From NCBI GenBank assembly GCA_030407315.1, contig JALQPE010000598.1, positions 186,001 through 250,000 on the forward strand: DNA of 64,000 bases, in the 5' to 3' direction. The stretch comes from Asparagopsis taxiformis (taxonomy: Eukaryota > Rhodophyta > Florideophyceae > Bonnemaisoniales > Bonnemaisoniaceae). Shown piece by piece: positions 26,685 to 54,813 of this stretch. Both the position numbers and the translations under genes were made by a program. Position 1 is the first letter of the stretch; each line of letters begins with the position of its first letter. Below the pieces are notes generated by a model that searched no databases, was not told where the DNA came from, and was given only the letters and a program-made list of their open reading frames with translations.

Positions 26685-28987
<2,303 letters not shown>

Positions 28988-34660: not shown

Positions 34661-34685
34661 GGGAGCAACCGGAAATCGCCAGTCC
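34661..34685 (+). repeat. Left terminal inverted repeat of PIF/Harbinger
   Basis: 25 bp beginning GGGAGCAACCGGAAATCGCC; reverse complement of 37192-37216 with one mismatch. Confidence 0.92.
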
Positions 34686-34896: not shown

Positions 34897-35739
34897 ATGT
34901 CTGCTGTTCCGCAGAACACGCAAAGCAAGCATGGCGACGAGCCCCCATCTTCCTCACGTACCGTCGCCTTACCAGCAGAGGAAGGTGTCAACACGTGTGA
35001 ACCGGTACACCTGGCAGTTGAACCGTTGCGAATAGTGAAAAGGCAAACTCGAGCTGGGGCACCAAACTACACCACAGAAGACATAGATGCTCTTCTCGAT
35101 TGTGTATCTGCCGTGCAACCTCTCGGCTCTAACCATTGGGCTATAGTAGCGAACAAGTTTTCGCTGTGGGCAAAGGAGAACGAGAGACCGGCCAGGGACC
35201 AAGACAGTATCCGCAACAAGTTTGACAAGTTGGCCAATGCCAAAAAACGAACTGGAGACCCTTCGTGCCCCTCGACTGTTCGCAAAGCGAAGAATATAGC
35301 ACGGGACATACAAAATAAATGCGCAGCTCGAGTGCTAGGAAGTGACGTCGACAACGAGGATACAAATGATGCTGACAGTGTCGAGAGAGGTGGAAGTTGT
35401 GTGACAGAGGAGATCGAAACTGTAGGTAAATATGTCGGGAAGCGTCGAATGGGGAGCACGGGTCTTTCAACACCGTCAAAAATGTCAAAGACTGATAGCA
35501 ACTTAGTGGAACATGTGGGGCAAATTTCAGGACATATTGGAAAGATATCAGAGTTCATGTCACGCAGCGCAATCGAAGAAACATCCTCAATGACCAAAGA
35601 AGACGTTAAGGCAGTAGTAAAAGCCGAAATATCAAAAAGCCTACAACCTACTAACCAGATGCTGGAGAATATGGCCGAGATGCTTCGTGCTTTGACTAAG
35701 TCTGGTTTTCAGAGTAATGGCGCGAATAAACCGGGATGA
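34897..35739 (+). CDS. Harbinger Myb/SANT-like (DUF6818-type) protein
   Basis: A 280-residue partner protein of the transposon. Residues about 48-120 form a Myb/SANT-like trihelix: PNYTTEDIDALLDCVSAVQP, NHWAIVANKF, DSIRNKFDKLANAKKRTGDP. In Harbinger systems this protein binds the transposon ends and helps bring the transposase into the nucleus. The middle is acidic, and the C-terminal 90 residues (from about 190) look helical and could dimerise. ATG at 34897, no frame break. The family name is recalled from domain resemblance. Confidence 0.82.
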   Translation: MSAVPQNTQSKHGDEPPSSSRTVALPAEEGVNTCEPVHLAVEPLRIVKRQTRAGAPNYTTEDIDALLDCVSAVQPLGSNHWAIVANKFSLWAKENERPARDQDSIRNKFDKLANAKKRTGDPSCPSTVRKAKNIARDIQNKCAARVLGSDVDNEDTNDADSVERGGSCVTEEIETVGKYVGKRRMGSTGLSTPSKMSKTDSNLVEHVGQISGHIGKISEFMSRSAIEETSSMTKEDVKAVVKAEISKSLQPTNQMLENMAEMLRALTKSGFQSNGANKPG

Positions 35740-35782
35740 TACGATCTAACGAGAACGGTAAAATTAATTTCAACTGTATGGA

Positions 35783-37030: not shown

Positions 37031-37191
37031 CCATGGCTTACCATCAACTTACGGTATAGGGACAGTTTACGGTACGAAACCAAATCTGGCGAAGTGGATC
37101 GCCCTTTCAGACCCCGACCCAAATCACCAGATTTGGCGGAAACTCGCCAAATTTCAGCACTTGTGATTGGTCCAAAGACTGGCGAAGTAGT

Positions 37192-37216
37192 GGAGTGGCG
37201 ATTTCCGGTTGCTCCC
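37192..37216 (-). repeat. Right terminal inverted repeat of PIF/Harbinger
   Basis: 25 bp ending CGGTTGCTCCC; inverted copy of 34661-34685. Confidence 0.92.
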
Positions 37217-37384
37217 ATTCAGTGATCGCTGTTGGAGTGTACAGTTATGCTCACAAACATTTTCAAATTTAACTACTTTTCAATCCACGCGTAACATATA
37301 CAAAACGTACCATCATACGCCGCATTCAGATGCACCACCATCGACACCGCACCTCCCGCCACGCTAGTCCATCCGTCCACCACA

Positions 37385-39166
37385 ATGAACCCCATCCAAC
37401 CCGCCGCGACGTCGCACCCCGCACCGACCCGCCCGTCGAAACGATGGTCTGTCGCCTTGGCGGCGGCGCTGATGAACGCGCTGCAATCCGGCGCGTTCTT
37501 CTTCACCCCAACGACACTAATGCCGTTAATCGTCGCCGATTTCAGCCTCCCCCTCTCCCTCTCGACCGTTCCAATCGCCATCGGCAAGATAGCCTACGTG
37601 CTGCTACTCATACCCGGCGGCATGCTTGTGGATAAATTCGGCCCGCGTGTGTGTGTATTTCTCGGCGTGTTTGGTCTCGCACTCTTCATGACCATGTACG
37701 CTGTTTTTGTCTCGTCGTTTTCATTCCTCGTCGTCATCCACGTGCTGCTTGCAACCGTCGCTAGCGTCAGTGGCGTTCCCGTGTATTCCATATTTGTCGC
37801 CCAGTGGTTCCATACCGCAATCGGCCTCGCCATGGGGCTTGTACTCGCCGGGTATTCCGCAGCTGGTACCGCGATTCCCGCCCTGCTTGGTCCCATTGCC
37901 GCTGCGTTTGGCTGGCGTGTTGCAATGGGTGTTACCTGTGCGTTGTTGTGGTGTGTTGCATTGCCGGTTACGTTTTTCTTTCTGCATGAGAATTGTGACG
38001 CGCAGACAGATTTCATTGCGGTGAAGACGGAGGATGAACAGTGTGCGGAACGTACGCCGTTTCTTTCCAGTGAACAGCATGAGCAAGATGGGGACGTTAT
38101 GATGGGCTTGGAGCATAATTCATGGACGTTTGTGGGCTTTGCGTTTTCCTATATTCTGTTGCAGTATTGTTTCGGGTGCTTTAGTGAGAATCTTATGTTC
38201 TTGTTGACGCTTGATAATGGTATGTCCCTGTCAGTTGCATCCTTGTTTTTCAGTATTTTGAACTTGTCTTCGTTTTCAGCAAAGTTGGTCGGCGGTCACC
38301 TTGGGGATAGGTATGATAGATTTCATGTTGCATCAGCATCCAGCGGCTTGGCAGCTGTGGGTATCTTATTCTTGTTCATGTCACCTCCCAGTCTAGGAGA
38401 TGATAATATTCCACACTTGACATCGTCACCACTGGCGTTTTTGTTGTTTACAATATTATTCGGATTTGGATATGGGGCGACGTTCAACAGCCTGTACGCG
38501 CTCACACCCATTGTGTTTGGCAAACGTAATCTAGGCCGTACTCAAAGTGCGTTGTTCGGCCTCGGTCTCACTGGAAACGCTATAGGCTCGGTGTTGACCG
38601 GTGTGCTGCGCTCGAGATACGGCTCGTATGAACGGGCTTTTCTCGTTTCCGCTGTTGCATGCATTGCAAATTTTTTTGTATTCAATCTCAATCGATTGAC
38701 TCTGGGCGGCAGTGTGGAGGGCTTGAAACGTCTGAATGAGGAGCAGCGAAATGTAATACGAGCAGGCGCGTTGAATGGTATGGAAGAACTAGAAGTGGCG
38801 GAAGCTGCAGCCCAACAGCGAGTAGGACTGCTGAGTAATGCAGCTTCACCGAATATGTCACCGACAGGTAGCATGTCAGATGAACAAGGTGTGGATTTTA
38901 TTTTTGGATCTGGAATACAGACGGATAACGGTTTCCCAATTGCGAGAGATTGGTCTAGTTCGTCTCTGCGAAACGAGCTTTTGGGCGGTCGCACGCGGTT
39001 AGAAAGTGCATCTAGAAGGGCTGGTCGGATGAGAAGATCGTCTACTTTTGAAGCCATGATTGATTCAGGAATTATTTCGGCTAGTTTGGAATCGGCAGGG
39101 TATCTCGGGAAAAAGTCGAGGATTTCACGGAGGAGCTCGAATGATATGTCTATGAGACTTGAATAA
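37385..39166 (+). CDS. Major facilitator superfamily transporter
   Basis: A 593-residue membrane protein with about 12 hydrophobic spans in two groups of six (about residues 25-205 and 245-445). The loop between spans 2 and 3 has the MFS motif GGMLVDKFGPRV, and the second half has the related GGHLGDRYDRF. The central loop and the 150-residue C-terminal tail are hydrophilic, the latter Ser/Arg-rich with possible phosphorylation sites. It resembles the broad oxalate/monocarboxylate-type or nitrate-type MFS groups, but the substrate cannot be told. ATG at 37385, 168 bp after the Harbinger element. Convergent with the amidohydrolase gene. Confidence 0.9.
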   Translation: MNPIQPAATSHPAPTRPSKRWSVALAAALMNALQSGAFFFTPTTLMPLIVADFSLPLSLSTVPIAIGKIAYVLLLIPGGMLVDKFGPRVCVFLGVFGLALFMTMYAVFVSSFSFLVVIHVLLATVASVSGVPVYSIFVAQWFHTAIGLAMGLVLAGYSAAGTAIPALLGPIAAAFGWRVAMGVTCALLWCVALPVTFFFLHENCDAQTDFIAVKTEDEQCAERTPFLSSEQHEQDGDVMMGLEHNSWTFVGFAFSYILLQYCFGCFSENLMFLLTLDNGMSLSVASLFFSILNLSSFSAKLVGGHLGDRYDRFHVASASSGLAAVGILFLFMSPPSLGDDNIPHLTSSPLAFLLFTILFGFGYGATFNSLYALTPIVFGKRNLGRTQSALFGLGLTGNAIGSVLTGVLRSRYGSYERAFLVSAVACIANFFVFNLNRLTLGGSVEGLKRLNEEQRNVIRAGALNGMEELEVAEAAAQQRVGLLSNAASPNMSPTGSMSDEQGVDFIFGSGIQTDNGFPIARDWSSSSLRNELLGGRTRLESASRRAGRMRRSSTFEAMIDSGIISASLESAGYLGKKSRISRRSSNDMSMRLE

Positions 39167-39436
39167 CTGTTTATGGAAAGGTATGCCAGCAACTAAAGTT
39201 GATGTTGCTTATATAACACAACTATATTCCATAATGTTTGTGTACGTGCTTGGCAGCAGAGAATTTCTGGTACATTCAAGTGAGCGATCGCGCTGGTGCG
39301 TCGCCCGACCGGTACTGACGACTAGACTTGGGAAGTTCTCGCGCGCAGAATATTGTTATGATGACCGTATGGGTAAGTGACAAGCTTGTCAATGATTGCA
39401 GATGAAGAAATGACAACTGCTCATTCCAAAATTGGA

Positions 39437-40834
39437 TTACAACGTCTGATGAATGGGCAATTTATAGAGTTGAGTGGCATTTTCTGCGAGAATTTTGCGG
39501 ATGGCCGCTTTGGCCTCCGCTTGACCGAGATCGCCGCTGATGACGGACGCTGCAATAACACCAGCAATGACTCGTCGCCCCCAACGTGCCGCGAGGAAAA
39601 ACACATCCGGAGTTGAATGCGCGTCTGACGAGTAGAGTACTTTTGTAATTGGTGCAATCTCCAGTGCTTCGTCGACCACTTTGAACATGCCGCGCACCGA
39701 CAGCAGTGGAATCGCCAGACCGACGTCCAGATACACCGACGGATACGCCGCTGCGAGGTAGGCAGCCTCTCGCGTATACGGCCATGCCGCGTGCAGCAGC
39801 ACGATTGCAACATCGGGAAACCGTTTAAATACTTGTCGAAGTAGAACGGGATTGGCATTCTTCAAATCGAGATCCGTGTCCCCAAATCCGCAATGGATCT
39901 GAATTGGAATTGCATGGCGTTTGGCAACTTGCAGACCTATTCGCACAACACAGTCCACAATCACCTTATCCTCCAGTCGAATCTTTTGTGCCGCTGAACC
40001 CTCAGATGCCGACAGTGATGCGTAAGACATTTTCGCCAGTGCATCTTCAAGGTCTTCATCAGTCCAATCGAGATTCACTGCCAGACCGCTTCTATATGCT
40101 GCAATGCTCTTAAAGGACACCACATTCGGTGGCAACGGATCCAATCTGGCAGAAAATGCATTTCGAAACTGTTGTGCCCTCAGAGTAGTTCTCGGCTTCT
40201 TATCCGGCGAATGCGTATAACTCACCGGGCGCGGCCCTCTCGACCAGACATGATCTTGATTCTGTCTGACGAGATCGGTCAAAGTTTTCTCAGCCTCCGT
40301 CTCTAATCTGAGCACTCTCCTCGCGATCGGCACGTTGAGCCTGGTGGGAAAGTCGTGCAAATTAACCGGAAGCGCTCCGCGCGGACAGGCGAGACCGTCG
40401 TCGATCAACACGGCGGCTATACCAGCGGCGCCGAAGCAGCGTTTAGCTAGATTCCACGGGCCCATTTCGGCGCGAATGGCCTCGATGGCACGCTCTGTTT
40501 CCGCGGGATGGTCCAGTCCGTGGTGGTCGTCGTCGCGATGCTCGTCGTCCACATCGTCGCTGGAGGCGGCGCTGGAGTCGCGGAACAGACGCGCATCGGG
40601 GAGCACGAGGCCGTGGAGGTCGCGCAACGAGCGGCAGAAGGCGAGGGTGGCTCGTGCGGCGGACGGGTGGTCATGGGCGGCTTCGGATAGCACTTGCGCG
40701 AGCTTGGGCATGGAAAATGTGTTGGTGGTGTGGTCGGGGATGCAGAATGGATGCGCGTGATTGTCCACGAGCAGTGTGGCATCGGCGACAGCTTCTAGAG
40801 TACTGTGTAAGTCTGTTCGCTGCGGCGGGTCCAT
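39437..40834 (-). CDS. Amidohydrolase 2 family protein, FluG N-domain-like
   Basis: A 465-residue TIM-barrel metal hydrolase. The metal site is suggested by VDNHAHPF near the N-terminus (HxH), IQIHCGFGDTD in the middle, VLLHAAWPYTREAAYLA, and LYSSDAHSTPDVFFLAA near the end (Asp). This order fits the amidohydrolase domain found at the N-terminus of fungal FluG and plant nodulin/glutamine-synthetase-like proteins, but here the synthetase domain is absent. Residues about 85-110 form an acidic His/Asp-rich insert. ATG at 40834 chosen because the upstream open frame is unlike the family. Substrate unknown. Confidence 0.85.
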   Translation of the reverse strand: MDPPQRTDLHSTLEAVADATLLVDNHAHPFCIPDHTTNTFSMPKLAQVLSEAAHDHPSAARATLAFCRSLRDLHGLVLPDARLFRDSSAASSDDVDDEHRDDDHHGLDHPAETERAIEAIRAEMGPWNLAKRCFGAAGIAAVLIDDGLACPRGALPVNLHDFPTRLNVPIARRVLRLETEAEKTLTDLVRQNQDHVWSRGPRPVSYTHSPDKKPRTTLRAQQFRNAFSARLDPLPPNVVSFKSIAAYRSGLAVNLDWTDEDLEDALAKMSYASLSASEGSAAQKIRLEDKVIVDCVVRIGLQVAKRHAIPIQIHCGFGDTDLDLKNANPVLLRQVFKRFPDVAIVLLHAAWPYTREAAYLAAAYPSVYLDVGLAIPLLSVRGMFKVVDEALEIAPITKVLYSSDAHSTPDVFFLAARWGRRVIAGVIAASVISGDLGQAEAKAAIRKILAENATQLYKLPIHQTL

Positions 40835-41067
40835 GGCGACGTTGCGATGGCCATGGATGAAGAAGGAGGAGGCGGGGGAGGGAAGAAGTGGATTGTTGTA
40901 AAGGAAACAGAAGTGTGCTTTTAGGTATGAGAATGATGTAGGGTTCTTGGATGACTTAGATGAATGGTTCACATTGAAACTGTAGGTATGATAAAACAGC
41001 TCTTCGATCAACAGCTCGCAGCTCCGTCGTGCACGGGTGCGAAATATCCCTAATACGTGTCTTGCAT

Positions 41068-41704
41068 TCATTCGTTCACGGATCGTAAAGCTTCGAGTAC
41101 AACTGCCCCCGCTGCGGTAGTGAATAAGGTGGCTGAAGATGGTGGTGGCGTATTGCAAGTAATGTTAGACAACCTTCCCTTCGTTTCTATATTCTCGATC
41201 CAATCATTGCCGCTTACCTGGATATACAGAAAATGTCCAAACCGGATGTCGCACAATCACGCAGCCACCCACCAGCTCGCAATCGTAGCCCATCGTTCGT
41301 TGCACGCCCATCACATCACTGTATGGAACGTTTCCATCGCCAAAGTACGGTAGTCCACTAGCTGCGTCTGTAATCTCAACCCATGCCTGTGCATCCAATC
41401 GATGCACCGCATCTCTTACCAGACGACCCCAGTCGAGAAATCGCTCCAACAATCTGTCCTTTTCGCTCGCCTGTTGCTCGCCAAATTCCAGCAGCGGCAG
41501 GCTGGATTTCTGAAATGTTGGCACAATGTACAACGTGGTCGTTTCGTTGATTTTCGCCGCCGGAAACACTGCCTTCAACTCGCGACACAGCGTTTTCGGA
41601 CATTCATGTACGGAATATTCGAAATCGCTCAGCTTTTTGCTTGCAGTTGGTGCTAATATTGTGTTGACACCTTTCTTCGGTATGTAACTACCAGCACCTG
41701 CCAT
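41068..41704 (-). CDS. MMADHC: MMADHC (CblD) cobalamin trafficking protein, two exons
   Basis: CblD directs vitamin B12 to methionine synthase and methylmalonyl-CoA mutase after CblC processing. Minus-strand exons 41704-41218 and 41132-41068 give 183 residues. The intron (85 bp) has GTAAGC, GTCTAACAT and CTTCAG. Recognisable blocks are FEYSVHECPKTLCRELKAVFP, AWVEITDAASGLPYFGDGNVP and GYDCELVGGCVIVRHPVW, in the same order as in animal MMADHC. The C-terminal exon reading is the least certain part. Compared with human CblD the N-terminus is short; an upstream in-frame Met at about 41776 could add a targeting region. Confidence 0.85.
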
Positions 41705-42195
41705 ATCGATTCGTTCATCCTCAAACCGATCCGGCTTCAAGCCGTGGAAGAGTGTGAACCATAGAATGCACCGCACAATCGGGATTTACAAACCGATCAG
41801 GATTTACACCGGACCACGTGTCCAGCTTTGCAACGTCATCACAACTCAACGGCGGAGATCGATTGCGCGCTTGCAGTGCGCCCCGCTATGACTGGCCAGA
41901 TCTACTGCCGCCGTCTGTGCACCGAATGAAAAGTGTTATCATACCGCAGCGAGATGGACCATGAAATTTGAAAATATTTCTCATACTGAATCTATGTTAC
42001 GCTCACCACAAAATATCGTGTGCTCAGTTGCGGCGCCACGCGCGCTCGTCGACATGTAGAGATACACATATCTGGTCGCCAGCTTTATCCGCCACCAATC
42101 CGCTCGACCATATAGACACTCATTGTATTCAATTGCATCTCATCCTATCGCATCTCCCTCATCCTCTCCCACCCGTCTATCAATTCGATTTCCAA
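41705..42195. other. Divergent intergenic region
   Basis: Upstream region of MMADHC (minus) and the phosphate translocator (plus). The plus-strand frame of the translocator is open from 41968 but has no ATG before 42196. C-rich, G-poor stretch before the translocator. No specific site identified. Confidence 0.4.
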
Positions 42196-43365
42196 ATGCT
42201 GTCCGCATTCATCCCCGTCACCGCCCGGCCGCTCGCCAATCGCGCCACCCACCAACGCCTCGCCCTCCAGTCACGCTCCGCCCCATTGCGTCACACCTGT
42301 TTCGTCCGGCCCATTGTCCAACCGCCAATTGAACAACTTCATTCGCGTTCACTAATCCGTGCCAGTGCTGCAGATACATCATCATCGTCCCCTCCAGTTC
42401 CAGCTCCCGCTGAAAAGTCAAACACTCTCAAGGTCGGTTTCTACATCTTCCTCTGGTATGCATTCAACATTGTCTACAACATTTCCAACAAAAAGGTCCT
42501 CAACTGGTTCCCAGTTCCGTGGTTTGTCTCGTGGTTCCAGCTTCTCGTCGGCTGTTTTTACGTGCTCCCCCTCTGGGCATTGCGTATCCGTAAGGCACCC
42601 ACCGTGCCCCGCGAGGCAGTAAATACTCTCTTGCCAATTTCCATCGGACATGTCATCGGACACGTCAGTACAGTGGTATCGTTGGGAGCAGTCGCAGTTT
42701 CGTTCACTCATGTCGTCAAGTCCATGGAACCATTTGTGAATGTCATTGGCTCTGCTGTTTTCCTCCAGTCGATATTCCCATTCCCTGTTTACGCGTCCCT
42801 GCTACCTGTTGTAGCTGGTGTGGTGATGGCATCCGTGTCAGAAGTCTCCTTCACCTGGCTCGGATTCCTGTCTGCAATGACCTCCAACTTTGCCTTTACC
42901 GCTCGTAATATTTTCTCAAAGCTCTCCATGAACAAGCCCAAGGGTGACAATATGGGACCTGCAAATCTCTTTGCTGTACTGTCCATCATGTCCACTATTT
43001 TGCTCGCACCCGTCGCGCTCATCATGGATAACCCCGTAAAGCTGCAAAAAGCATGGTGGGCAGCAACGACCGGCGCAACCGCTGTTGTCACTGCCCCGAA
43101 GCTTCTCGGTGGTCTGTTAATTTCCGGTCTGTTCTTCTATCTCTACCAAGAGGTCGCATTTAAAGCTCTGGACTCGGTTCATCCCATCACTCATGCCGTA
43201 GCGAACACTGTGAAACGTGTGGTAATCATTGTCACGTCTGTCTTTGTGTTCCAGAACCCTGTCACGAAGGCTAATGCGATTGGCTCGGCCATCGCCTTGC
43301 TGGGTGTGTTGCTGTATTCTATCACCAAGAACTACTTTCCGGAGAAGAAAGCAAAGCAGGCATAA
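42196..43365 (+). CDS. Plastid triose-phosphate/phosphate translocator
   Basis: A 389-residue inner-envelope antiporter that exchanges stromal triose phosphate (or related C3-C6 phosphates) for cytosolic phosphate. Residues 1-75 form an Arg/Ser/Pro-rich transit peptide without acidic residues. The rest is the TPT/EamA-type fold with about eight to ten spans: GFYIFLWYAFNIVYNISNKK, FTHVVKSMEPFVNVIGSAVF, SNFAFTARNIFSKLSM, and AVANTVKRVVIIVTSVFVFQ, which carries the Lys-Arg pair that binds the phosphate groups. The sequence looks closest to the TPT class. It supplies carbon for floridean starch and floridoside in a red alga. Single exon. Confidence 0.95.
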   Translation: MLSAFIPVTARPLANRATHQRLALQSRSAPLRHTCFVRPIVQPPIEQLHSRSLIRASAADTSSSSPPVPAPAEKSNTLKVGFYIFLWYAFNIVYNISNKKVLNWFPVPWFVSWFQLLVGCFYVLPLWALRIRKAPTVPREAVNTLLPISIGHVIGHVSTVVSLGAVAVSFTHVVKSMEPFVNVIGSAVFLQSIFPFPVYASLLPVVAGVVMASVSEVSFTWLGFLSAMTSNFAFTARNIFSKLSMNKPKGDNMGPANLFAVLSIMSTILLAPVALIMDNPVKLQKAWWAATTGATAVVTAPKLLGGLLISGLFFYLYQEVAFKALDSVHPITHAVANTVKRVVIIVTSVFVFQNPVTKANAIGSAIALLGVLLYSITKNYFPEKKAKQA

Positions 43366-43868
43366 TTTGCCTCTCGCGTGTTATCATAGCATTTGACCCT
43401 TGTTGAAAGGATGGGTGCTGTCGGTGAGATGGGGAATCGTGAATACATTTCTCAATTGAACAGCCGGGACACGGCCAATTTGCACGGAGTAATGTGTTTG
43501 TCGATGCGCCTCGCACGGTCTGATTGTATGCAGTCATGTTGGTTTTTGGTCAAGTGGACATAGACATACGTACTCATAGACTTCTCGTTTGCATAATGCC
43601 GTCTGACACGCTTTTCTGATGCACGACCGGCTCGTTTCGCTTTTGGAGGGTAAGGTAACAACTGCTTACGTCACGGTAGACCTAGAAAACGAGACAACCT
43701 TTACATGGTCACTGTGTCCGATATAAACCAATTGCTGATTTCGTATCCGGGATTAAATTTGTTCTACAACAATTACAGCTGACCTACCTATCTACATTTG
43801 TCCTTATGTACATTCAAAGCTTAGCCCAAACGCTTTGTACAACTCCATCCTGCTTCGAAAAATACTAG
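43366..43868. other. Convergent intergenic region
   Basis: Between the stops of the translocator and COP1. TGTACA at 43807-43812 and 43836-43841 lies 28-62 bases beyond the COP1 stop. Otherwise nothing recognised. Confidence 0.4.
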
Positions 43869-46115
43869 TTATTCATCTTCAAACCCTTCGCGAGGACCAG
43901 CTTCGAGCGCTAGAACTTTCATAGCACCAAGACTGTTCGCACCTACAAGCATTGCGGGTCCCTTTGGACACCAACACACGCTGCTCACAAATTGCGATTC
44001 ATCATCATCCTGCGTCTCCTCGCCAGTCAACGGGTCGACGCTAGGGAATCGGTACGATGTAAATGGACGCGGAATCGCTTTGTAATAGCAATAAACCGCA
44101 TTTTCCTCTGAACCACATGCAATATAATCAGCGGTCACACTCAATCCAACAAAGTTTTTGTCATTCAAATGCCCCTTAAACGTCCTCGCCAACGACATCG
44201 ACTGGAGATCCCACAATTTTATCGTCGAGTCGACAGACGCAGACACCAGTTCCGTGCCCGACATAAACTTGACGTAACTCACCGCGCGAGAGTGAGAGCG
44301 GAATGTCGTCAAAGCCTCTCGCGTGTTTCGCAAATCGTAATAGTGTACGTTGAAGTCCACCGAGCCGAATGCTAGCTTTTCGGCAGCCGTTGGGTGGAAT
44401 TTTACCGAACAAACATTGGCAGGTTTGTTATCAATGGTCAGTACGCTCTCTCGCTGAGACGTGCTCCACAGCTTCACACGACCATCGTCGGAACCGGATG
44501 CAAAGTACGTCGGATTAGCAGGACAGTAATCCACGCTCCATGCACGATTTTCATGCTCCTCATATTCGCGCAAGGCACTGCTTCTATTCACGTCCCATAG
44601 AGTGACAAAACCTTCATAATCCGATGACACGAGATGATTTCGAATGTACGGATTCCAGCACACCCAGCTAAGTTTCGCCGATGTGGTGATTTCTTTCACT
44701 GGGTAATGAACCTCAGCCAAGTTGCGCGTAATGTTTGCAAACTCGAAGATTTTGATACGTCGGGTAACGCCAGCTGTTGCTAGAAATTCCGACTCTCGAT
44801 CAAACTCGATGGAGGAAATAATATTAGATGCCCGAAATACATCTGGAATTGGCGGGTCTGGTACACGAGCGACATGTATCAAAGTAGCGCGCGATTTGAA
44901 CTGATTGAACTGTGTCAGTTTGAAGATATCCTCCTTGAACCTCCGCAACGCTTGACTTCTCGCGTCTCCCGTTTGATGGGCAACGGTCGAGAAGTAGTGA
45001 GATTGCAGCACGTCGTAGTGCTGACTCAAGCGTTGGCGCTTGGAGGAAAACTCGGAATTATCGCTTTGATGTGCCGTCGATTGCAAATCACCAGATGACG
45101 ACCGACCATCTGGTACTTGCCCAGGGCTTGATGAAGTCATGCCCTCGCGCTTACCAGATATCGACGTCGGGGGCTTGACATTGTCCAAGGCAGGCTGCTG
45201 TGCCTTCTCAACCTCAGTTGCCTTCATATCGACATCTAGAAATTCCACCTCTGACTTTAGTCTATTGATAATACTCTGCTTCTCCTCACGCGTATGCTTT
45301 AAAAAATCCAACAAAAGCTCATTCTCAACGCGTCGCTCCTTGCCTGCCTTTTCTTGCAACTTGCGATTCAAACTGGCAATAATAGCAGTGAGTTGTTCTG
45401 TAGATAAATTCTCCCCAGCGGCTGCAAGCAACGCTTCTGGATTAGCGGCGACACTAGATATACTCGGCACAGCCTTATTATAAAACGAGGTAGCCTGTTG
45501 CAAAGAACCTTCACTTTGCGCGTTTTGATACTGGGACCTGCCATCGCTCTCCGCCGACGTTGTTTGTTTAAACGACGAGTCATTCCGCTGGCTGGACGGA
45601 GCAGGACCGGTCGCGGGGGCGGCACTCGTACTTGCCACGACTGGCTGCTCCATGGCGGCCATGACTCGTGCCTCTGCTCTGGCACGACGTGCGGCGAGGG
45701 TGGATGGGGAGCCACGATTGGCGACGACAGTCTCGGTGCGTCTGGGGAGCGGGGGCGGGGCTGCTCGTCTGGACGAGAGTTGATCGGTGATATCCGGTGT
45801 TCGGGCGGCAGTCGGAGCAGTCGGGGAGGTGGGCGCATTAGAAATAGACTGCGCAGCGTTGCGATGGGGGGCGGATAAGAGCGGGGGAGTGGAAGTGGCT
45901 GTGGTTTGCATGGCGGGTGATGCGCAACTAGCGTCGGCTTGAAAGTGCGGGGTGATGGTTTCCAGGGTGACAACGGCGCCGCAGAGCGGGCATGTTTTGC
46001 GGGTCGCGAGATGGGTGGTGATGCATTCGTAGCAGAAAGTGTGACCGCATTGGGTGCAAAACGGACCCGAGGGCGGCGTTAGACATATGGGGCAGTTGTA
46101 TTGCTGCGTGCCCAT
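43869..46115 (-). CDS. COP1: COP1 E3 ubiquitin ligase (RING, coiled coil, WD40)
   Basis: A 748-residue homologue of COP1, which with SPA proteins targets light-signalling factors for degradation in plants. The N-terminal RING has CPICLTPP, CGHTFCYECITTHL and CPLC (about residues 8-48). It is followed by a long Ala/Ser/Pro-rich linker and a coiled coil at about 250-320. The C-terminus holds seven WD40 repeats with FKEDIFKLTQFNQFKSRATL, SSDYEGFVTLWDV, FASGSDDGRVKLW and SVDSTIKLWDL. The chosen ATG (46115) places the RING at residue 8. The frame stays open to 46469 with proline-rich sequence but without another ATG, so an upstream exon is possible. Light signalling here is inferred. Confidence 0.94.
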   Translation of the reverse strand: MGTQQYNCPICLTPPSGPFCTQCGHTFCYECITTHLATRKTCPLCGAVVTLETITPHFQADASCASPAMQTTATSTPPLLSAPHRNAAQSISNAPTSPTAPTAARTPDITDQLSSRRAAPPPLPRRTETVVANRGSPSTLAARRARAEARVMAAMEQPVVASTSAAPATGPAPSSQRNDSSFKQTTSAESDGRSQYQNAQSEGSLQQATSFYNKAVPSISSVAANPEALLAAAGENLSTEQLTAIIASLNRKLQEKAGKERRVENELLLDFLKHTREEKQSIINRLKSEVEFLDVDMKATEVEKAQQPALDNVKPPTSISGKREGMTSSSPGQVPDGRSSSGDLQSTAHQSDNSEFSSKRQRLSQHYDVLQSHYFSTVAHQTGDARSQALRRFKEDIFKLTQFNQFKSRATLIHVARVPDPPIPDVFRASNIISSIEFDRESEFLATAGVTRRIKIFEFANITRNLAEVHYPVKEITTSAKLSWVCWNPYIRNHLVSSDYEGFVTLWDVNRSSALREYEEHENRAWSVDYCPANPTYFASGSDDGRVKLWSTSQRESVLTIDNKPANVCSVKFHPTAAEKLAFGSVDFNVHYYDLRNTREALTTFRSHSRAVSYVKFMSGTELVSASVDSTIKLWDLQSMSLARTFKGHLNDKNFVGLSVTADYIACGSEENAVYCYYKAIPRPFTSYRFPSVDPLTGEETQDDDESQFVSSVCWCPKGPAMLVGANSLGAMKVLALEAGPREGFEDE

Positions 46116-48412
46116 GTCGATGATGGTGATGTCGCTGCGGTCGGGGGCGACGGGAAGCGTCGGGTCAGACGGTGGTGGCGGGGTATGTTGCGGGAGGCGG
46201 CTGGTTGGCGGTGGCGGATTGGCATTGGATACGGTGTGACGCTGAAATGGAGAAGTTGTTGATAATGGAAGGAGAGTCGCACAGTGCGTTACTACGGGCG
46301 CGCGGCTAAAGTCCGGTCGAGGTGTACAGGTTTGTATGGCTGCGCGTGCGTTGTATGGATATCTCTCGTTTCTGCGGCTTGAAAAAATCTGCAGAAATTT
46401 GTGATTCTTTCCAGATATTTCAGCTTGTTTTTTCCTTATTTTTTCGGCGCTGTTCCAATTCAATTGCAAATCTACATAGACTGTGTAGATGTGAATCTTC
46501 TGGAAATCTCCACCGCTTGGAGATGGAGTACACGACCCAGACGGCAGACCCTGTTCAATACTGTGTCAATGTGCCTGTTGAAAAATGAAACCGCAAGCGG
46601 TGCAAATCAAACCCGAGTAGATGTTACTAACTCATTTTGCAAGATGAAATTGTACGTACAGCGTGCGCGCTCATCGTGGCTCAATCGAATTTCGCCTCAT
46701 TCCATCTACCTACTTTAACCATCCTTCTTACATATTGTGTGCTTAACACAGATATTCGTGAACCCCAGGCTGTCAGTGACATTATCACGCTGCACCCGTG
46801 CTGGCGCGGCAGACTTAACAACTCGAGTCTGATACGCTATGCAATCCTGCCATCCATTGGATGATAATATTGAATCATATCCCAATTTTAAACACGCTTG
46901 AGGATTGGTTGTTTCCATAATCAATAAAAATTAGATGTCGTGACTTGTCCAAAATCAATTGAATCTCTTCCGAGCGACAGTGCACCTCCGCTTCTGCGCC
47001 TCATCATGAGCTCTCCCTCCGATCTCGTCCGTGTTTTGGGCCCGAGGCGAAGTACTCGAAATTGACAATCGTTCCAATGAACCTCCACCGCTACTAGTGA
47101 AGAAACCTATCAAACGACTCTTCCTCGAAACGATATTCAGTTTCGATATCGAGTGATCATGGGATGTTTGTAAACATATTTCCGACGCTTTCCTGTGCAT
47201 TCAAATCATGAGCCCACATCAGGACCCCTTGCTATCTTCCTCTTGCATGGTCCTGCAAACAAATCGTGATGGAGATCATTAGTAGAAGCACTAGGTCTAT
47301 GCTTGAAGAGTTACGAAAGCGGAAAAGAGTGTGGCGCAGGTTACCAAACAAATGTTCTATTTTATCATTCAATCGAAGCAGTGATCCAATACGCCGATCA
47401 ACCTTCTACATCTCCTAGAAACTTTTGGGCTCTTATATGAAAACTACCACTGATGATGTCATTTGTTACGGAACTTTTTCTACGTCCAATGCCACGCAAG
47501 GAGTAAACAAGCCCAGTCATCATTATAGACGGGTTGATGTGGTTTGCATACCCACCCTAAGCACAATATTACTTTTGTTCCATACACCAATGCGTCTATG
47601 AACAACACGAGTGCCTTGACACCTACTACCTACTTCACTTTTCTCCAAGGAACAGTCATGAAAGCACAGTTCAGCATCAGCATAGTTGCTAGCCTATCGC
47701 AATACATTGAAATGATCTTTCAATCCTCGCCAATTTATCACAGCTCCAGCAACGAGGCATTTGAAACATACATGGTGCCACTGTTCAACGGAGGATAGTA
47801 GATTCTCTGTGTTCTCTCCTGAGCAGTCAGCCACGTCCAATAAGAAAGGATTGAGAAAAATAGGTGAAGATGCACCTAAATGGTTCGAGAAGGGGTGAGA
47901 TGGAGATTCCTTGCTTTCTCCGTCCATGATATCTGTTTCCCCATATCGTTACGTTTATGGCCACTGTCTATTCCTCTTACCCTCCCAGGATTCGGTTCCA
48001 CCCATGGACTAGTTCCTCTGTCCTTCGCGCGTTTTCACGAAAAGAGCTATGTGCCTATCGGGGAGAGTATAAGAACTGTGCAATACACAAGGTGCACTTT
48101 GTATTCTGTACACTCTAATCATTGCTTGGACGTACCGACTCGTTCGTACACACCAGGCTGATGATTACAGAGGAAAAGTAGGCCACTCTCCGAACTGAGT
48201 CCTGAATTGCAGTCCTTTATTGTTACCTAGGACTAGACCGAGGGGGAAAGCATTCTCTCCGCAGAGCGTGAACAGGCACTCTACGATCCTTCTCACATAG
48301 AGTGGGCGTGAGGATTGTGTAACCAGACAAGTACAATATCATGTCAAAAACAATTTTGGCTTGAATAACTTCACTGATGCAATTTTCGGGCCGAAACTCA
48401 TGAATAAAAATA
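46116..48412. other. Gene-poor region between COP1 and the inverted repeat
   Basis: About 2.3 kb with only short ORFs on both strands and no recognisable domain. The first 350 bases continue the open COP1 frame and probably include its leader. No tRNA or repeat seen. The stretch is AT-richer than neighbouring coding DNA. Confidence 0.45.
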
Positions 48413-50894
48413 TTGTAACATCGTGTAAAGTTGCCGAGTGCGTGCGTACCTCTGTACGCTGCATCCCCAGGCTGCACCGTGGATGACGATAAAGAGATCT
48501 GAGGAAGAACAACTTTCGTTGACGACGACGATAGTGAACAATTGCTTGGTACTATTGCCCACTAAAGGTCATCCTTCACAATTTCCTCGACCTTGATACT
48601 CGTCCCTCACCTCGCATGCTCATTATTGCAAATTGCGACAAATTCCGTGCGGCCATTGCATCTCTCACATCAGAGTGGTATCCAGAGAATTGCATTTGGG
48701 ACTGTCTATTCTATTCTCTTCTGTTGTGTTCTGTTCATTCCTTCCCCGTCATGGTAGCTGCAATCATCGCTCTAGTATCAGAAACAATTGAATCTCTACA
48801 TCAAGAAAAGAAACGAACGCGCTCTCAATTCTACTAAACATGCTGACAACAATAAAATCTCAAAACAGCACCTCCGCATCCCTTTATATACATCCTATCC
48901 ATCCATCTCTCACTCTCATACTCAATCACATCCTCTCTTTCTTCACAGCCATCACTGCGTCGCTGGCCCACACCCATCCCCCCAACCGCCTCGGTCCATT
49001 GCCCCAGCCGCATGGCGTTCTCCTGCTCGCTCCTGAGTTGCTGCACCGCGCTGTACAACTCCTCAATGGACACACTTCGGAGATCAGACCCACTGCCAGG
49101 AGATGATCCATCAACCTGCATGGCATCATGGGTCTGTTCCGTGTGGTGTGCATAAGCGCCAGCAGCGTTTGCTGGGACCAGCGCCGGACGCGCCTGCGTT
49201 GCTCGGCCCCGCTCCATCCGCTCCATCCGCGCCCGCTGCGCTCTGTGCTGCCAGGCGCGAAGCGCGCCGTTCATGTGTTTGCATGTGTCGGGTCATGCTC
49301 GAGTTCCACATGAACCCCTTGCCGCACCCCGGAACCGTGCACACCATTTTAAACTGTCCCAGATGCATCTTCTCGTGCATCTTCAAGTTGTACTTGGTGG
49401 TAAACTTTTTCCCGCAGTCTTCAAACGTGCAGGGGAACAGAGACTGAGGATCCAAATCCTTCGCCTTCTTGCGCGGTGCACGTTTCTTCAGCGAGGGCAC
49501 GGGCGGAAGAGGCATTGGCGGCTGCGGCTGTTCGACAGCGGCGGGTGCAGATGGTGCAGCCAGTGATTCCACAACCGCGGGCTCGGTCCCATTGAGAGCA
49601 ATGGGCTCTACCGGCGGATTGGGAACATTGAGCTCCGGAGCAGGAATGGGCTCGTACTGCGGAGTCGACGGTGTTATGGGCAAGAACTCGTCGATGTTTA
49701 TCTCCGTCACCGCTTCCATCAACTCACGCGCGTCGGTGGAGTTTGGAGGGGTGGTTGGTTCCACTTCCTCCCACTCTAGAACCAAGTCCCAGTTGATCGG
49801 GGTCTCTTCTGGGGACTTGGGCTCAGCAGCAGCTGCGGTGGGCGCAGCGGGGGCGGACACGTCGGCGCTGTCGCAGTTGTCACCGGGATTGCAGATGACT
49901 TCTGCAGGAACGGAGCTGGTGACAGTATTCGGGTCTGGAGTCACCGCTTCATCGTCCTGCACTGCGTCGGCACCACCCTTCTGTTTATCCGGAGTTTCAA
50001 CTATATGTGTTGAAAATATAGCATCCGGATGACAGTGCTCCTCGAGCTGCTCGGGGTGAACAGGCTCCAGAGGGTCTGCAAATGCGCTTTCGATGAGGGT
50101 CTCGTAGAGCGCGTAGGAGGCAATGTCTTCGTCAGCGGTTACCAATGGAGACGACATTTTGCAGTTTTTCGTGAATTGGTGACGAAGTGTTGAAGTTGTT
50201 GAAGATGTGGATGGTGGATGGGAATGAAGAGCTGCCGAACGAGCCCTGTGAAGCTCGAATAAATAGGACATGGGAAGGTGCTGAGAGGGATCGTGTGAAA
50301 TGATGAGTAAATGTTTGACAGCATTGGAGAGGAAATGGGAGGGATAGGAGTACGCGAAAATTGAGGAAACGAGAAGGTTGCTGGCTGGGAAAGCTTGATT
50401 TTTCTGAGAAGTGTTGAAGACTGAAAGTGAGGGAAGAGAGAGACGGGGAATGTGATTTGGTGTCGACGGGAGGGTGAATATTGATTTGATTCTATGGCAT
50501 TTCCTGTCAAGAGGGAACGAAACCAATGCAACACGCTGTTGAGGTGCAATATTCCAATTTAGTGAAGGTACAACCGTTGCTCGCAGTGATTATTAGTACA
50601 AGCAGTTTGTTCATTTTGATCAAGTTTCTCCGCAGATTCACCAGGGCACCAAGTGGACATGCAACCAAACAGTAAAGATTCAATACTTTGCTGCTTCCGA
50701 TCATTATTGCACAGTCGTCGATGTTTCACGTTTAGAGTAGCATGATTTATTCTGCACTTCTGTTGTACCACATTGCTGTAGTAGATTCTAGCTCAGCCAT
50801 GCAACATTTGCCCAGATCAATCTTCTCTTCGACTACACACCGGTGATGAGTGCGGTTCCAGCTCTTCAATTTTCTTCAAGCTGCTGCAATGCTG
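48413..50894 (-). repeat. Left arm of 2.48-kb inverted repeat
   Basis: Reverse-complementary to 52175-54656 over 2482 bp. Paired positions sum to 103069 throughout the arms. In the stretches compared by eye I found only two one-base indels, which cancel in length. Both ends of homology are sharp on the inside (GCTGCAATGCTG). The outside end shows a short run of weaker similarity beyond the boundary. The arm holds a copy of the C2H2 zinc-finger gene and its flanks. Confidence 0.95.
49126..50157 (-). pseudogene. C2H2 zinc-finger gene, frameshifted copy
   Basis: Mirror copy of the gene at 52912-54174. From ATG 50157 it encodes the same acidic, Pro/Ala-rich N-terminus and the same two C2H2 fingers. 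One extra base in GCGTTTGC (about 49168-49170) shifts the frame after GAGPS, so the product ends at 49126 after 343 residues in an unrelated tail of about 13. The intact copy has 420 residues. The loss removes the C-terminal helical region but not the fingers, so a truncated DNA-binding protein could still be made. A second one-base difference lies further downstream (about 48911). Could be genuine or a sequence error. Confidence 0.85.
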
Positions 50895-52174
50895 CACTAT
50901 TGCGGGTTAACATTTGGAGTGAAGGAACGTTCGTAGAACGTAACTAGATCATGCTAGCCCCTGTACCTATAGTATGGATAACAGTTTAAAAGCAACTGAA
51001 CAATTCCTAATAAAGTGAAGCACAAGTAACGAGATGTTCACGTAAATTTGCTGGAAATGGAGCCGACATGCACTCCGGAGGAGGCAGCAATTAATGGCGA
51101 ACGGGATCTGCGTTGAGTTGCTAACCATGTTCTCTAGATAAAAGTCTATGCCTCATTCAGGCCTGTTTTGGGCTACATGTAATCGGTATCTTTGGAGTTC
51201 AATTTATGGCCCCCGAGTACTGAGCCTTCGTTGGCAGATGTAGTCTTCTATCGACAAAAATCTAATGGAATGGAATATTCACCCAATCAAGAATTGAAAT
51301 CCCACATGTTGTTTGCGTAGATACAGTTAAACCTTGAACTGTTCGCGATTTAACGGAGACAATGTATGATGTCGAAGAAATAATCGCCTCATCCCCATTC
51401 CAATGTATTAACGTACAATCTTCCTCCAGTTGTCGTACGTGAAATCCATATAGTTGAAGCTAAGCAAAGGAGCGTCTCATATTTCCTAACTGTGTCCCGA
51501 AAATTATTTGGATTCAGTTTATTCAGCTGTTCAGCTCTTGAATGTGTCCTTTATGTTTGTTTTCGGTCGCCTAGAATGAGAATACCAAAAATGTTTCTCA
51601 GCGCTCAGTGGATATACTTTGCCCTTCCCTCATTTCTCAGCGAGTGCTCCATAATTTTTAGAGCTATAAGATGTACACTGCGAGTCAGCCAGTGTTTTGC
51701 ATCAATATGCGAAACATTGTTGAAAATCGACGAGGAGAGAATGTCATTTTGGGGATGATATTGTTACAAACGACTTCGGGAAAAGAAAATGTAGATGTAG
51801 AGAGGATTTGATTAGTTTAGGGGAGTCTATCGGTGGAACGTCATACACTTCACTACTCCTGACGAGGCCTTCTACAGAGTGAGGTCTTTCGTGTGGTCAG
51901 GGTCTAGACGTAACAGCATGAAAATACATGATTGTGCTCGTGGACAAAATCTATGTTGTCAATTTGCAGGGGATGTGGACATCTATAGATTCAACAGTCG
52001 ACCTCGTAATTCATGCATCGTAGCGAGACATCATGATCCTTATGTGTATTTCTTTGAGATAAAGAGAAATTCGTACGATTGGCTCAATAGATCTATCGTC
52101 CCAACCTGAATTTGCCCCTGTACCGCGTTCAACATAGAGTTCAATAGGGTTTCCAGAAAAGGATTACCTTTTGT
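50895..52174. other. Spacer between inverted repeat arms
   Basis: 1280 bp of unique DNA between head-to-head zinc-finger genes. It is AT-rich, with two short plus-strand ORFs (51492-51758, 51879-52109) lacking any domain. It probably contains distal upstream sequence of both genes. No mobile element or RNA gene recognised. Recombination between the arms would invert this segment. Confidence 0.5.
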
Positions 52175-54656
52175 CAGCATTGCAGCAGCTTGAAGAAAAT
52201 TGAAGAGCTGGAACCGCACTCATCACCGGTGTGTAGTCGAAGAGAAGATTGATCTGGGCAAATGTTGCATGGCTGAGCTAGAATCTACTACAGCAATGTG
52301 GTACAACAGAAGTGCAGAATAAATCATGCTACTCTAAACGTGAAACATCGACGACTGTGCAATAATGATCGGAAGCAGCAAAGTATTGAATCTTTACTGT
52401 TTGGTTGCATGTCCACTTGGTGCCCTGGTGAATCTGCGGAGAAACTTGATCAAAATGAACAAACTGCTTGTACTAATAATCACTGCGAGCAACGGTTGTA
52501 CCTTCACTAAATTGGAATATTGCACCTCAACAGCGTGTTGCATTGGTTTCGTTCCCTCTTGACAGGAAATGCCATAGAATCAAATCAATATTCACCCTCC
52601 CGTCGACACCAAATCACATTCCCCGTCTCTCTCTTCCCTCACTTTCAGTCTTCAACACTTCTCAGAAAAATCAAGCTTTCCCAGCCAGCAACCTTCTCGT
52701 TTCCTCAATTTTCGCGTACTCCTATCCCTCCCATTTCCTCTCCAATGCTGTCAAACATTTACTCATCATTTCACACGATCCCTCTCAGCACCTTCCCATG
52801 TCCTATTTATTCGAGCTTCACAGGGCTCGTTCGGCAGCTCTTCATTCCCATCCACCATCCACATCTTCAACAACTTCAACACTTCGTCACCAATTCACGA
52901 AAAACTGCAAAATGTCGTCTCCATTGGTAACCGCTGACGAAGACATTGCCTCCTACGCGCTCTACGAGACCCTCATCGAAAGCGCATTTGCAGACCCTCT
53001 GGAGCCTGTTCACCCCGAGCAGCTCGAGGAGCACTGTCATCCGGATGCTATATTTTCAACACATATAGTTGAAACTCCGGATAAACAGAAGGGTGGTGCC
53101 GACGCAGTGCAGGACGATGAAGCGGTGACTCCAGACCCGAATACTGTCACCAGCTCCGTTCCTGCAGAAGTCATCTGCAATCCCGGTGACAACTGCGACA
53201 GCGCCGACGTGTCCGCCCCCGCTGCGCCCACCGCAGCTGCTGCTGAGCCCAAGTCCCCAGAAGAGACCCCGATCAACTGGGACTTGGTTCTAGAGTGGGA
53301 GGAAGTGGAACCAACCACCCCTCCAAACTCCACCGACGCGCGTGAGTTGATGGAAGCGGTGACGGAGATAAACATCGACGAGTTCTTGCCCATAACACCG
53401 TCGACTCCGCAGTACGAGCCCATTCCTGCTCCGGAGCTCAATGTTCCCAATCCGCCGGTAGAGCCCATTGCTCTCAATGGGACCGAGCCCGCGGTTGTGG
53501 AATCACTGGCTGCACCATCTGCACCCGCCGCTGTCGAACAGCCGCAGCCGCCAATGCCTCTTCCGCCCGTGCCCTCGCTGAAGAAACGTGCACCGCGCAA
53601 GAAGGCGAAGGATTTGGATCCTCAGTCTCTGTTCCCCTGCACGTTTGAAGACTGCGGGAAAAAGTTTACCACCAAGTACAACTTGAAGATGCACGAGAAG
53701 ATGCATCTGGGACAGTTTAAAATGGTGTGCACGGTTCCGGGGTGCGGCAAGGGGTTCATGTGGAACTCGAGCATGACCCGACACATGCAAACACATGAAC
53801 GGCGCGCTTCGCGCCTGGCAGCACAGAGCGCAGCGGGCGCGGATGGAGCGGATGGAGCGGGGCCGAGCAACGCAGGCGCGTCCGGCGCTGGTCCCAGCAA
53901 CGCTGCTGGCGCTTATGCACACCACACGGAACAGACCCATGATGCCATGCAGGTTGATGGATCATCTCCTGGCAGTGGGTCTGATCTCCGAAGTGTGTCC
54001 ATTGAGGAGTTGTACAGCGCGGTGCAGCAACTCAGGAGCGAGCAGGAGAACGCCATGCGGCTGGGGCAATGGACCGAGGCGGTTGGGGGGATGGGTGTGG
54101 GCCAGCGACGCAGTGATGGCTGTGAAGAAAGAGAGGATGTGATTGAGTATGAGAGTGAGGAGATGGATGGATAGGATGTATATAAAGGGATGCGGAGGTG
54201 CTGTTTTGAGATTTTATTGTTGTCAGCATGTTTAGTAGAATTGAGAGCGCGTTCGTTTCTTTTCTTGATGTAGAGATTCAATTGTTTCTGATACTAGAGC
54301 GATGATTGCAGCTACCATGACGGGGAAGGAATGAACAGAACACAACAGAAGAGAATAGAATAGACAGTCCCAAATGCAATTCTCTGGATACCACTCTGAT
54401 GTGAGAGATGCAATGGCCGCACGGAATTTGTCGCAATTTGCAATAATGAGCATGCGAGGTGAGGGACGAGTATCAAGGTCGAGGAAATTGTGAAGGATGA
54501 CCTTTAGTGGGCAATAGTACCAAGCAATTGTTCACTATCGTCGTCGTCAACGAAAGTTGTTCTTCCTCAGATCTCTTTATCGTCATCCACGGTGCAGCCT
54601 GGGGATGCAGCGTACAGAGGTACGCACGCACTCGGCAACTTTACACGATGTTACAA
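52175..54656 (+). repeat. Right arm of 2.48-kb inverted repeat
   Basis: Inverted partner of 48413-50894, same length, almost identical. Inner edge at CAGCATTGCAGC (52175), outer edge near GATGTTACAA (54656). Confidence 0.95.
52912..54174 (+). CDS. C2H2 zinc-finger protein, intact copy
   Basis: A 420-residue putative transcription factor. Residues 1-235 are acidic and Pro/Ala/Glu-rich (activation-domain-like). A basic patch (KKRAPRKKAKD) follows, then two tandem C2H2 fingers at about 240-300: CTFEDCGKKFTTKYNLKMHEKMH and CTVPGCGKGFMWNSSMTRHMQTH, both with complete Cys2His2 ligands. An Ala/Gly-rich segment leads to a short helical C-terminus (IEELYSAVQQLRSEQENAMR) that could dimerise. Start at ATG 52912 (MSSPLVTADEDIAS); the frame is open upstream to 52543 with sequence that looks like leader. 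I know no named family beyond C2H2. A TATATAAAG motif follows directly after the stop. Confidence 0.88.
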   Translation: MSSPLVTADEDIASYALYETLIESAFADPLEPVHPEQLEEHCHPDAIFSTHIVETPDKQKGGADAVQDDEAVTPDPNTVTSSVPAEVICNPGDNCDSADVSAPAAPTAAAAEPKSPEETPINWDLVLEWEEVEPTTPPNSTDARELMEAVTEINIDEFLPITPSTPQYEPIPAPELNVPNPPVEPIALNGTEPAVVESLAAPSAPAAVEQPQPPMPLPPVPSLKKRAPRKKAKDLDPQSLFPCTFEDCGKKFTTKYNLKMHEKMHLGQFKMVCTVPGCGKGFMWNSSMTRHMQTHERRASRLAAQSAAGADGADGAGPSNAGASGAGPSNAAGAYAHHTEQTHDAMQVDGSSPGSGSDLRSVSIEELYSAVQQLRSEQENAMRLGQWTEAVGGMGVGQRRSDGCEEREDVIEYESEEMDG

Positions 54657-54813
54657 CATTTTATTCACACGTGTTACGCCTGGACTGGTTTGGTGAGCGG
54701 ACAAGTCTTGTCATAATCAACCCGATTTTGCCGTCGTTATCAGCCGTCCGTTCTATAACCGTTCCTCGTAATGACGCCAAAGTACACCTCTCCGTTCAAG
54801 CTTGCATCTTGAA

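What the first reader, a model, noticed from the sequence alone, without database searches (positions are those of the whole stretch)
48413..54656. Near-identical 2.48-kb inverted repeat with head-to-head zinc-finger genes
Two arms of equal length (2482 bp) match almost base for base as an inverted pair around a unique 1.28-kb spacer. Each carries one C2H2 zinc-finger gene plus flanks. The near identity, including non-coding flanks, implies either a very recent inverted duplication or ongoing gene conversion. The structure can flip the spacer by recombination, form a cruciform, or, if both strands are transcribed, give double-stranded RNA. A misassembly (two haplotypes or a hairpin join) is the main alternative.
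Basis: partly seen in the sequence, partly recalled or inferred. Interest (0 to 1): 0.8.

Follow-up and report, generated by a model that had tools for sequence, protein, structure and literature searches.

The report
Mirror-image duplicated zinc-finger gene pair
What is probably a red alga carries two nearly identical copies of a zinc-finger gene as mirror images around a short unique stretch; the arrangement appears in both assembled versions of the region, so it looks real, and one copy seems to have been overwritten by the other, a known way for such mirror pairs to stay alike.

Summary
The inverted repeat is in the sequence: arms 48401-50894 and 52175-54667 (99.84% by BLAST; one substitution in the frayed outer end, none from 48413 inwards, two cancelling 1-nt indels) around a unique 1280-nt spacer. 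Each arm holds one C2H2 frame pointing outwards. The host is inferred to be a red alga. A second contig, C843, is the other haplotype (it lacks two TE insertions). It carries left flank, left arm, spacer in the same orientation and most of the right arm, so misassembly is unlikely. A very recent duplication is also unlikely: the C843 left arm differs from both window arms (and from its own right arm where that is covered, 4 of 10 sites) by 10 substitutions, all in the outer arm, and the excess stops at the arm edge (10 in 731 nt inside, 1 in the adjoining 3400 nt). Simplest reading: the window's left arm was overwritten by right-arm sequence, i.e. arm-to-arm gene conversion of an older inverted duplication. 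Consensus collapse is the main rival. As assembled only 1 of 4 gene copies has an unbroken frame. Precedents exist in worms, yeast and primates: a new member of a known kind.

The parts
48401..50894 (-). left arm of the inverted repeat (A1)
   Evidence: similarity frays between 48401 and 48413
50895..52174 (.). unique spacer, 1280 nt, 41% GC against 51% in the arms; no inverted self-similarity and no similarity to the rest of the window; its two ORFs of at least 80 aa give no Pfam match above cut-off (one at E 0.2); no Rfam hit at gathering score; found once per haplotype, same orientation in both
52175..54667 (+). right arm of the inverted repeat (A2)
49126..50157 (-). left copy of the C2H2 gene as assembled: ATG at 50157, frame shifted by the extra T at 49168, 343 aa, both fingers before the shift
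52912..54174 (+). right copy of the C2H2 gene, one open frame, 420 aa. The start codon is inferred (an in-frame ATG also lies upstream at 52798); absence of introns is inferred from the open frame
53632..53706 (+). zinc finger 1 (residues 241-265)
   Evidence: PF00096, E 6e-09 for the whole protein
53722..53796 (+). zinc finger 2 (residues about 271-295), same C-x4-C-x12-H-x3-H spacing
   Evidence: PF00096 gives two stretches at max_evalue 1 but one at 0.001; residue limits read from the sequence
48436..49217 (.). tract in which the C843 left arm (B1) differs from A1 and A2: 10 substitutions (4 of them also covered in B2, which sides with A1 and A2), a 4-nt deletion, a 5-nt insertion and a 9-nt deletion; interpreted as the part of A1 overwritten by right-arm sequence
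8219..54224 (+). stretch of the window covered by the second-haplotype contig C843 (38765 nt, whole contig), apart from two insertions at 21984-26621 and 34661-37216 that C843 lacks; C843 ends inside the right arm

Best explanation
A genuine inverted segmental duplication ('spaced palindrome') in a nuclear genome, inferred to be that of a red alga, with one C2H2 zinc-finger gene and its flanks in each arm. It arose before the two sampled haplotypes separated. The arms are kept alike by arm-to-arm (non-allelic) gene conversion: homologous pairing of the arms copies one arm onto the other, and the most recent visible event copied right-arm sequence over the outer part of the left arm in the window's haplotype. 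The likely consequence is two near-identical copies of one putative DNA-binding regulator evolving in concert. Shown: the structure, its presence on two haplotype contigs, and the variation pattern. Inferred: conversion as the cause, its direction, that both copies work, and the regulatory role.
For: Structure on two contigs with the same spacer orientation. C843 is a second haplotype: it aligns over window 8219-54224 with 76 substitutions and 68 indels and lacks a copia-type LTR element with an apparent 6-nt target-site duplication and a 2.56-kb element with 25-nt terminal inverted repeats and a 3-nt target-site duplication. A1 against A2: 0 substitutions from 48413 inwards; at the allelic rate seen outside the outer arm, 4.3 expected, P(0)=0.014. 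B1 against A1: 10 substitutions in 48401-49131, against 1 in the adjoining 3400 nt outside (Fisher 2.6e-7), 18 in the 11184 nt of left flank (3.4e-6) and 0 in the inner 1763 nt. At the 4 sites covered by all four arms A1=A2=B2 and B1 is the odd one; at the other 6, A1=A2 and B2 is not covered. A mutation-only reading needs all 10 changes on the B1 branch (two-sided 0.002 by a fair-coin test; 0.0002 with the three longer indels). The tract's outer limit is where arm homology ends. The arm was found nowhere else in the genome search (4 matches, all in these two contigs, whose counts are lower bounds).
Against: Two haplotypes only, no reads, no related species. Only 4 sites are seen in all four arms (coin test 0.125 on those alone), and at the 9-nt deletion B2 has its own 6-nt deletion in the same short tandem repeat. 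Dense substitution clusters also occur outside the repeat: 9 in a 696-nt window from 29033. The inner arms show no substitution between haplotypes (0 where 6.6 are expected, P 0.0013), which fits homogenisation but also consensus collapse. Within C843 the two arms are not homogenised at the 4 covered sites. As assembled only 1 of the 4 gene copies (A2) has the full 420-aa frame: A1 is shifted behind the fingers, B1 by one nucleotide before the fingers, B2 in several places; I take most of these 1-nt indels for consensus errors, but they could mean decaying copies. The right-arm/right-flank junction is seen on one contig only.
Confidence: 0.7

Rival explanations
1. Real inverted duplication, but the identity of the window's two arms is (partly) produced by the assembler: reads of the four near-identical arms were mixed in correction or polishing, so that A1 took right-arm sequence.
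For: No substitutions among the four arms inward of 49131 although about 6.6 are expected over the two allelic comparisons. 1-nt indels scattered in C843 and one frameshift in A1. If the source is the published A. taxiformis L6 assembly, it was made with Canu and Pilon (passages read), and short reads cannot tell the arms apart.
Against: B1 kept 10 substitutions and three longer indels in the same process, so the pipeline did not collapse everything.
Confidence: 0.19
2. Very recent inverted duplication with no conversion; the B1 differences came in by an allelic crossover with an unduplicated, divergent chromosome.
For: A1 and A2 differ by no substitution from 48413 inwards; an allelic stretch with about 1.3% divergence (9 in 696 nt) exists elsewhere in this contig pair.
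Against: The left flank next to the arm has 1 difference in 3400 nt, so the divergent tract would need a second crossover at the arm edge. The duplication is in both haplotypes with the same limits at the three junctions that C843 covers, but for 2 nt at the right inner one.
Confidence: 0.07
3. Misassembly: hairpin join, missed-adapter fold-back read, or two haplotypes joined head to head.
For: Long-read assemblies do make such joins (general knowledge); the right flank is on one contig only.
Against: A fold-back read has no unique spacer and no different flanks; here a 1280-nt spacer and unrelated flanks exist, and a second contig with allelic differences repeats left flank-arm-spacer-arm.
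Confidence: 0.03
4. The inverted repeat is itself selected as a structure (cruciform, regulatory hairpin or dsRNA source), and conversion is the means.
For: Zhao et al. (PMC1803023, Results part 1 and Discussion read) argue this for similar worm pairs whose inverted structure outlives the sequence.
Against: Nothing here tests it. Divergent genes give same-sense mRNAs; Rfam gives no match at gathering score in 48000-55000; a 1280-nt spacer makes spontaneous cruciform formation unlikely (general knowledge).
Confidence: 0.05

Closest known systems
Divergent paralogous gene pairs in long inverted repeats of Caenorhabditis (F44E5.4/F44E5.5 and others; Zhao et al. 2007, PMC1803023)
   Same: Two divergent near-identical genes with flanks in kilobase arms around a short unique spacer; the paper gives 2207 bp of arms, a 126-bp spacer and 99.7% for the F44E5.4 locus, and names gene conversion as one possible mechanism.
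   Different: Probable red alga instead of nematode; ten times longer spacer; different gene; no related species could be compared here, so maintenance across species is untested.
Homogenised inverted repeats bounding the flip/flop region of Saccharomyces (Centroid genes; PMC9731477, abstract read)
   Same: Gene-bearing, nearly identical inverted repeats kept alike by continual homogenisation.
   Different: There the 24-kb interior inverts recurrently; here the 1.28-kb spacer has the same orientation in 2 of 2 haplotypes.
Human Y palindrome P6 (PMC3723533, abstract read)
   Same: Arm-to-arm conversion with tracts of kilobases (mean 2068 bp) and rare inversions. GC bias is reported there; here the right-type allele is G/C at 6 of the 8 sites that change between G/C and A/T (counted; too few to test).
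   Different: Y-linked and shown on 378 chromosomes; here two haplotypes of unknown linkage.

Membership tests
Gene-conversion-homogenised inverted repeat (spaced palindrome) | Two inverted, near-identical arms around a unique spacer | tested here: met
Gene-conversion-homogenised inverted repeat (spaced palindrome) | Duplication present in different haplotypes at the same place | tested here: met
   (2 haplotypes; right outer junction in one only)
Gene-conversion-homogenised inverted repeat (spaced palindrome) | Paralogous arms within a haplotype more alike than alleles | tested here: inconclusive
   window haplotype: 0 arm-arm substitutions while A1-B1 alleles differ at 10 (met); C843: B1 and B2 differ at 4 covered sites while A2 and B2 differ at none (not met there)
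Gene-conversion-homogenised inverted repeat (spaced palindrome) | Inverted structure conserved in sister species | not testable with these tools
   no relatives of this genome are held; protein searches gave no homologue beyond distant C2H2 matches
C2H2 zinc-finger protein | C2H2 finger motif above Pfam cut-off | tested here: met
   PF00096 36.3 bits against cut-off 25.2; in the stop-to-stop frames of both arms 35.8 and 36.4 bits
Transposon with long terminal inverted repeats | Multiple copies in the genome, target-site duplication, transposase between or in the arms | tested here: not met
   arm found only at this locus in its two haplotypes; the 1.5-kb outer flanks share only 12- and 17-nt matches at E 0.28; no transposase domain in the arm and spacer ORFs tested
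Spacer-inversion switch | Both spacer orientations found | tested here: not met
   same orientation in 2 of 2 haplotypes; a rare flip is not excluded

The most novel reading that the evidence does not exclude
The mirror arrangement is kept by selection because conversion between the arms continually repairs or co-evolves a fast-changing, lineage-specific regulator, making this a palindrome in a red alga that works like the mammalian Y palindromes.
Probability: 0.12. Interest if true: 0.5.

Novelty: new member of a known kind. Interest (0 to 1): 0.3.

Why it matters
Gene conversion between arms of inverted repeats is described in animals, yeast and a willow sex chromosome (abstract starts, abstracts). 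For red algae I saw no nuclear case among the listed titles and abstract starts of three searches (15 of 170 papers, 12 of 43, 2 of 2); most of these papers were not opened. Here one haplotype keeps arm differences and the other appears to have lost them, a small natural test of conversion. It also warns that near-identical inverted gene pairs in such assemblies need not be assembly errors.

Tried and rejected
Transposon: the arm was found at one locus in two haplotypes and lacks the hallmarks. Fold-back or hairpin misassembly: unique spacer, unrelated flanks, second haplotype. An older, longer duplication with decayed outer flanks: between the 1.5-kb outer flanks only a 12-nt and a 17-nt match at E 0.28. 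A gene or RNA in the spacer: two ORFs of 124 and 97 aa with no Pfam match above cut-off (DUF5477 at E 0.2), no Rfam match at gathering score. Homologues in other species to date the duplication: 10 hits among 7994 scored candidates, 8 named vertebrate proteins and 2 unnamed, each covering 11-12% of the query, presumably the fingers; in a second search with residues 220-310, 14 candidates and no hit. Best distant relative in the same genome: 35% over 148 residues (C1568:66257; 40 matches listed, lower bound).

How common such pairs are: the control is small. In 90 kb of other stretches (10 kb and 20 kb of C598, 20 kb each of C211, C1878 and C59) one inverted pair of at least 100 nt was found (684 nt, 89%, C598:250001-270000); in the 64-kb window only the pair under study. 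Stretches of 10-20 kb would miss wider pairs.

One gene, so an inference. The assembly size (141.5 Mb, 3156 contigs) resembles the published Asparagopsis taxiformis L6 assembly (142.47 Mb, 3308 contigs, from a diploid tetrasporophyte; passages of PMC12115072); the contig numbers differ, and this identification is not proved.

Recalled, from no call: Drosophila hsp70 at 87A as a divergent pair homogenised by conversion; a search listed papers on hsp70 and gene conversion, none opened.

Full report
What is there. The window is bases 186001-250000 of contig C598 in a 141.5-Mb, 3156-contig assembly. The inverted pair is as described: arms 48401-50894 and 52175-54667, a 1280-nt spacer, 99.84% identity by BLAST with 1 mismatch and 3 gap openings. 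The mismatch lies at 48412, in the frayed outer end; from 48413 inwards the two arms differ only by a missing C at 48908 and an extra T at 49168 in the left arm, which cancel in length. BLAST at E<=1e-10 shows no other inverted pair in the 64 kb.

The genes. Each arm contains one open frame pointing away from the spacer. The right copy (52912-54174) encodes 420 aa with C2H2 fingers at residues 241-265 and about 271-295 (the second is weaker, one stretch at E 0.001 and two at E 1). The left copy has the same start, but the extra T shifts the frame behind the fingers, so it ends after 343 aa. The three other arm copies lack this T. The C843 copies are broken too: the left one by a nucleotide at 49482 before the fingers, the right one in several places near the contig end. 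So 1 of 4 copies has the full frame as assembled. I take most of these 1-nt indels for consensus errors, but decay of some copies is not excluded. About 740 nt upstream of the start and about 490 nt downstream of the stop lie inside the arm (from the coordinates), so each copy has its own upstream region. No homologue was found beyond distant C2H2 matches (own genome). That the protein is a transcription regulator is an inference from the fingers.

The organism. The best hits with a named organism for the neighbouring COP1-like gene are red algae. The assembly statistics resemble, without matching, those published for Asparagopsis taxiformis L6, made from a diploid tetrasporophyte with PacBio reads, Canu and Pilon (passages of PMC12115072). 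Likely but unproved.

Is it an assembly artefact? The genome search finds the arm four times: twice in C598 and twice in C843 (counts are lower bounds by the tool's own note). C843 (38765 nt) runs parallel to window 8219-54224 and ends inside the right arm. It differs from the window by 76 substitutions and 68 indels, and it lacks two window segments: a 4638-nt copia-type LTR element (about 259-nt LTRs, apparent 6-nt target-site duplication, gag domain) and a 2556-nt element with 25-nt terminal inverted repeats and a 3-nt target-site duplication. C843 is therefore taken as the other haplotype. It carries left flank, arm, spacer in the same orientation, and most of the second arm. A hairpin or fold-back artefact would not give a unique spacer and unrelated flanks. 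The junction of the right arm with the right flank rests on C598 alone.

Recent duplication or conversion? I aligned four arms: A1 and A2 (left and right, C598), B1 and B2 (left and right, C843; B2 lacks the outermost 0.4 kb). Substitutions occur at 10 positions, all in 48436-49131. At each, B1 is the one that differs: from A1, A2 and B2 at the 4 positions that B2 covers, and from A1 and A2 at the other 6. B1 also has a 4-nt deletion, a 5-nt insertion and a 9-nt deletion in 48438-49217; at the last, in a short tandem repeat, B2 has its own 6-nt deletion. B1 and B2 further have scattered 1-nt indels, and B2 a 4-nt insertion and a 2-nt insertion at the spacer junction. Inward of 49131 no arm differs from another by a substitution. 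The excess begins at the edge of the repeat: 10 in 731 nt inside, 1 in the adjoining 3400 nt outside (Fisher 2.6e-7), 18 in 11184 nt of the longer left flank (3.4e-6). If both left arms had simply mutated since the haplotypes parted, the ten changes should fall on both; all ten on one is 0.002 by a fair-coin test, 0.125 if only the four fully covered sites are used. If instead the left and right arms had drifted apart earlier and A1 was then overwritten by right-arm sequence, one event explains the pattern, and its outer limit is where the homology ends. I prefer that reading. Of the two coding substitutions in B1 one is silent and one changes Val to Leu.

What speaks against it. Four fully covered sites are few. 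Another, unrepeated stretch of the same contig pair has 9 substitutions in 696 nt, so density alone is not proof. The lack of substitutions in the inner arms between haplotypes (0 where 6.6 are expected) fits homogenisation but is also what a consensus built from mixed reads would give. In C843 the two arms are not homogenised at the covered sites. Raw reads would decide, and I had none.

How it works. Arms of 2.5 kb at this identity can pair and convert each other; in the human P6 palindrome such events are frequent and inversions rare (PMC3723533, abstract). In this sample the spacer has one orientation in 2 of 2 haplotypes. Double-stranded RNA is not implied: both genes read outwards and their mRNAs would be the same sense.

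Comparison. The same architecture is described in Caenorhabditis (PMC1803023; abstract, Results part 1 and Discussion read): divergent paralogues, kilobase arms, short spacer, identity kept over long times, with gene conversion named as one mechanism. Homogenised gene-bearing inverted repeats also flank an inverting region in Saccharomyces (PMC9731477, abstract). The present case is a new member of this kind, probably in a red alga. Three searches for red algae with gene conversion or inverted gene pairs showed no such nuclear case in the titles and abstract starts listed (15 of 170, 12 of 43 and 2 of 2 papers). One paper on red algal sex chromosomes was searched by term: 'palindrom' and 'gene conversion' do not occur in its main text (PMC12502185).

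Noticed in passing
window 21984-26621: 4638-nt insertion absent from C843: copia-type LTR element with about 259-nt LTRs (3 substitutions and 11 gap columns of 264 between them), apparent target-site duplication ATCTAT, gag domain PF14223; present in one haplotype only.
   Followed up: partly
window 34661-37216: 2556-nt insertion absent from C843 with 25-nt terminal inverted repeats (96%) and a 3-nt target-site duplication (ATT); looks like a DNA transposon present in one haplotype only.
   Followed up: partly
window 27000-29999: Allelic divergence between C598 and C843 is raised here (19 substitutions and 18 indels by 1-kb bins; densest 9 substitutions in 696 nt from 29033), with no cause known.
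   Followed up: no
window 43869-46565 (-): COP1-like E3 ligase (RING plus WD40) in one open frame; best hits with a named organism are red algae.
   Followed up: partly
window 60311-60424: An element of about 100 nt with 10 listed copies at 77-83% in 8 other contigs, in C154 and C106 as inverted pairs about 75 nt apart: a short dispersed, possibly MITE-like repeat.
   Followed up: no
L042/L043 (C598:250001-270000): Another inverted pair on the same contig: 684 nt at 89%, arms about 3.8 kb apart.
   Followed up: no
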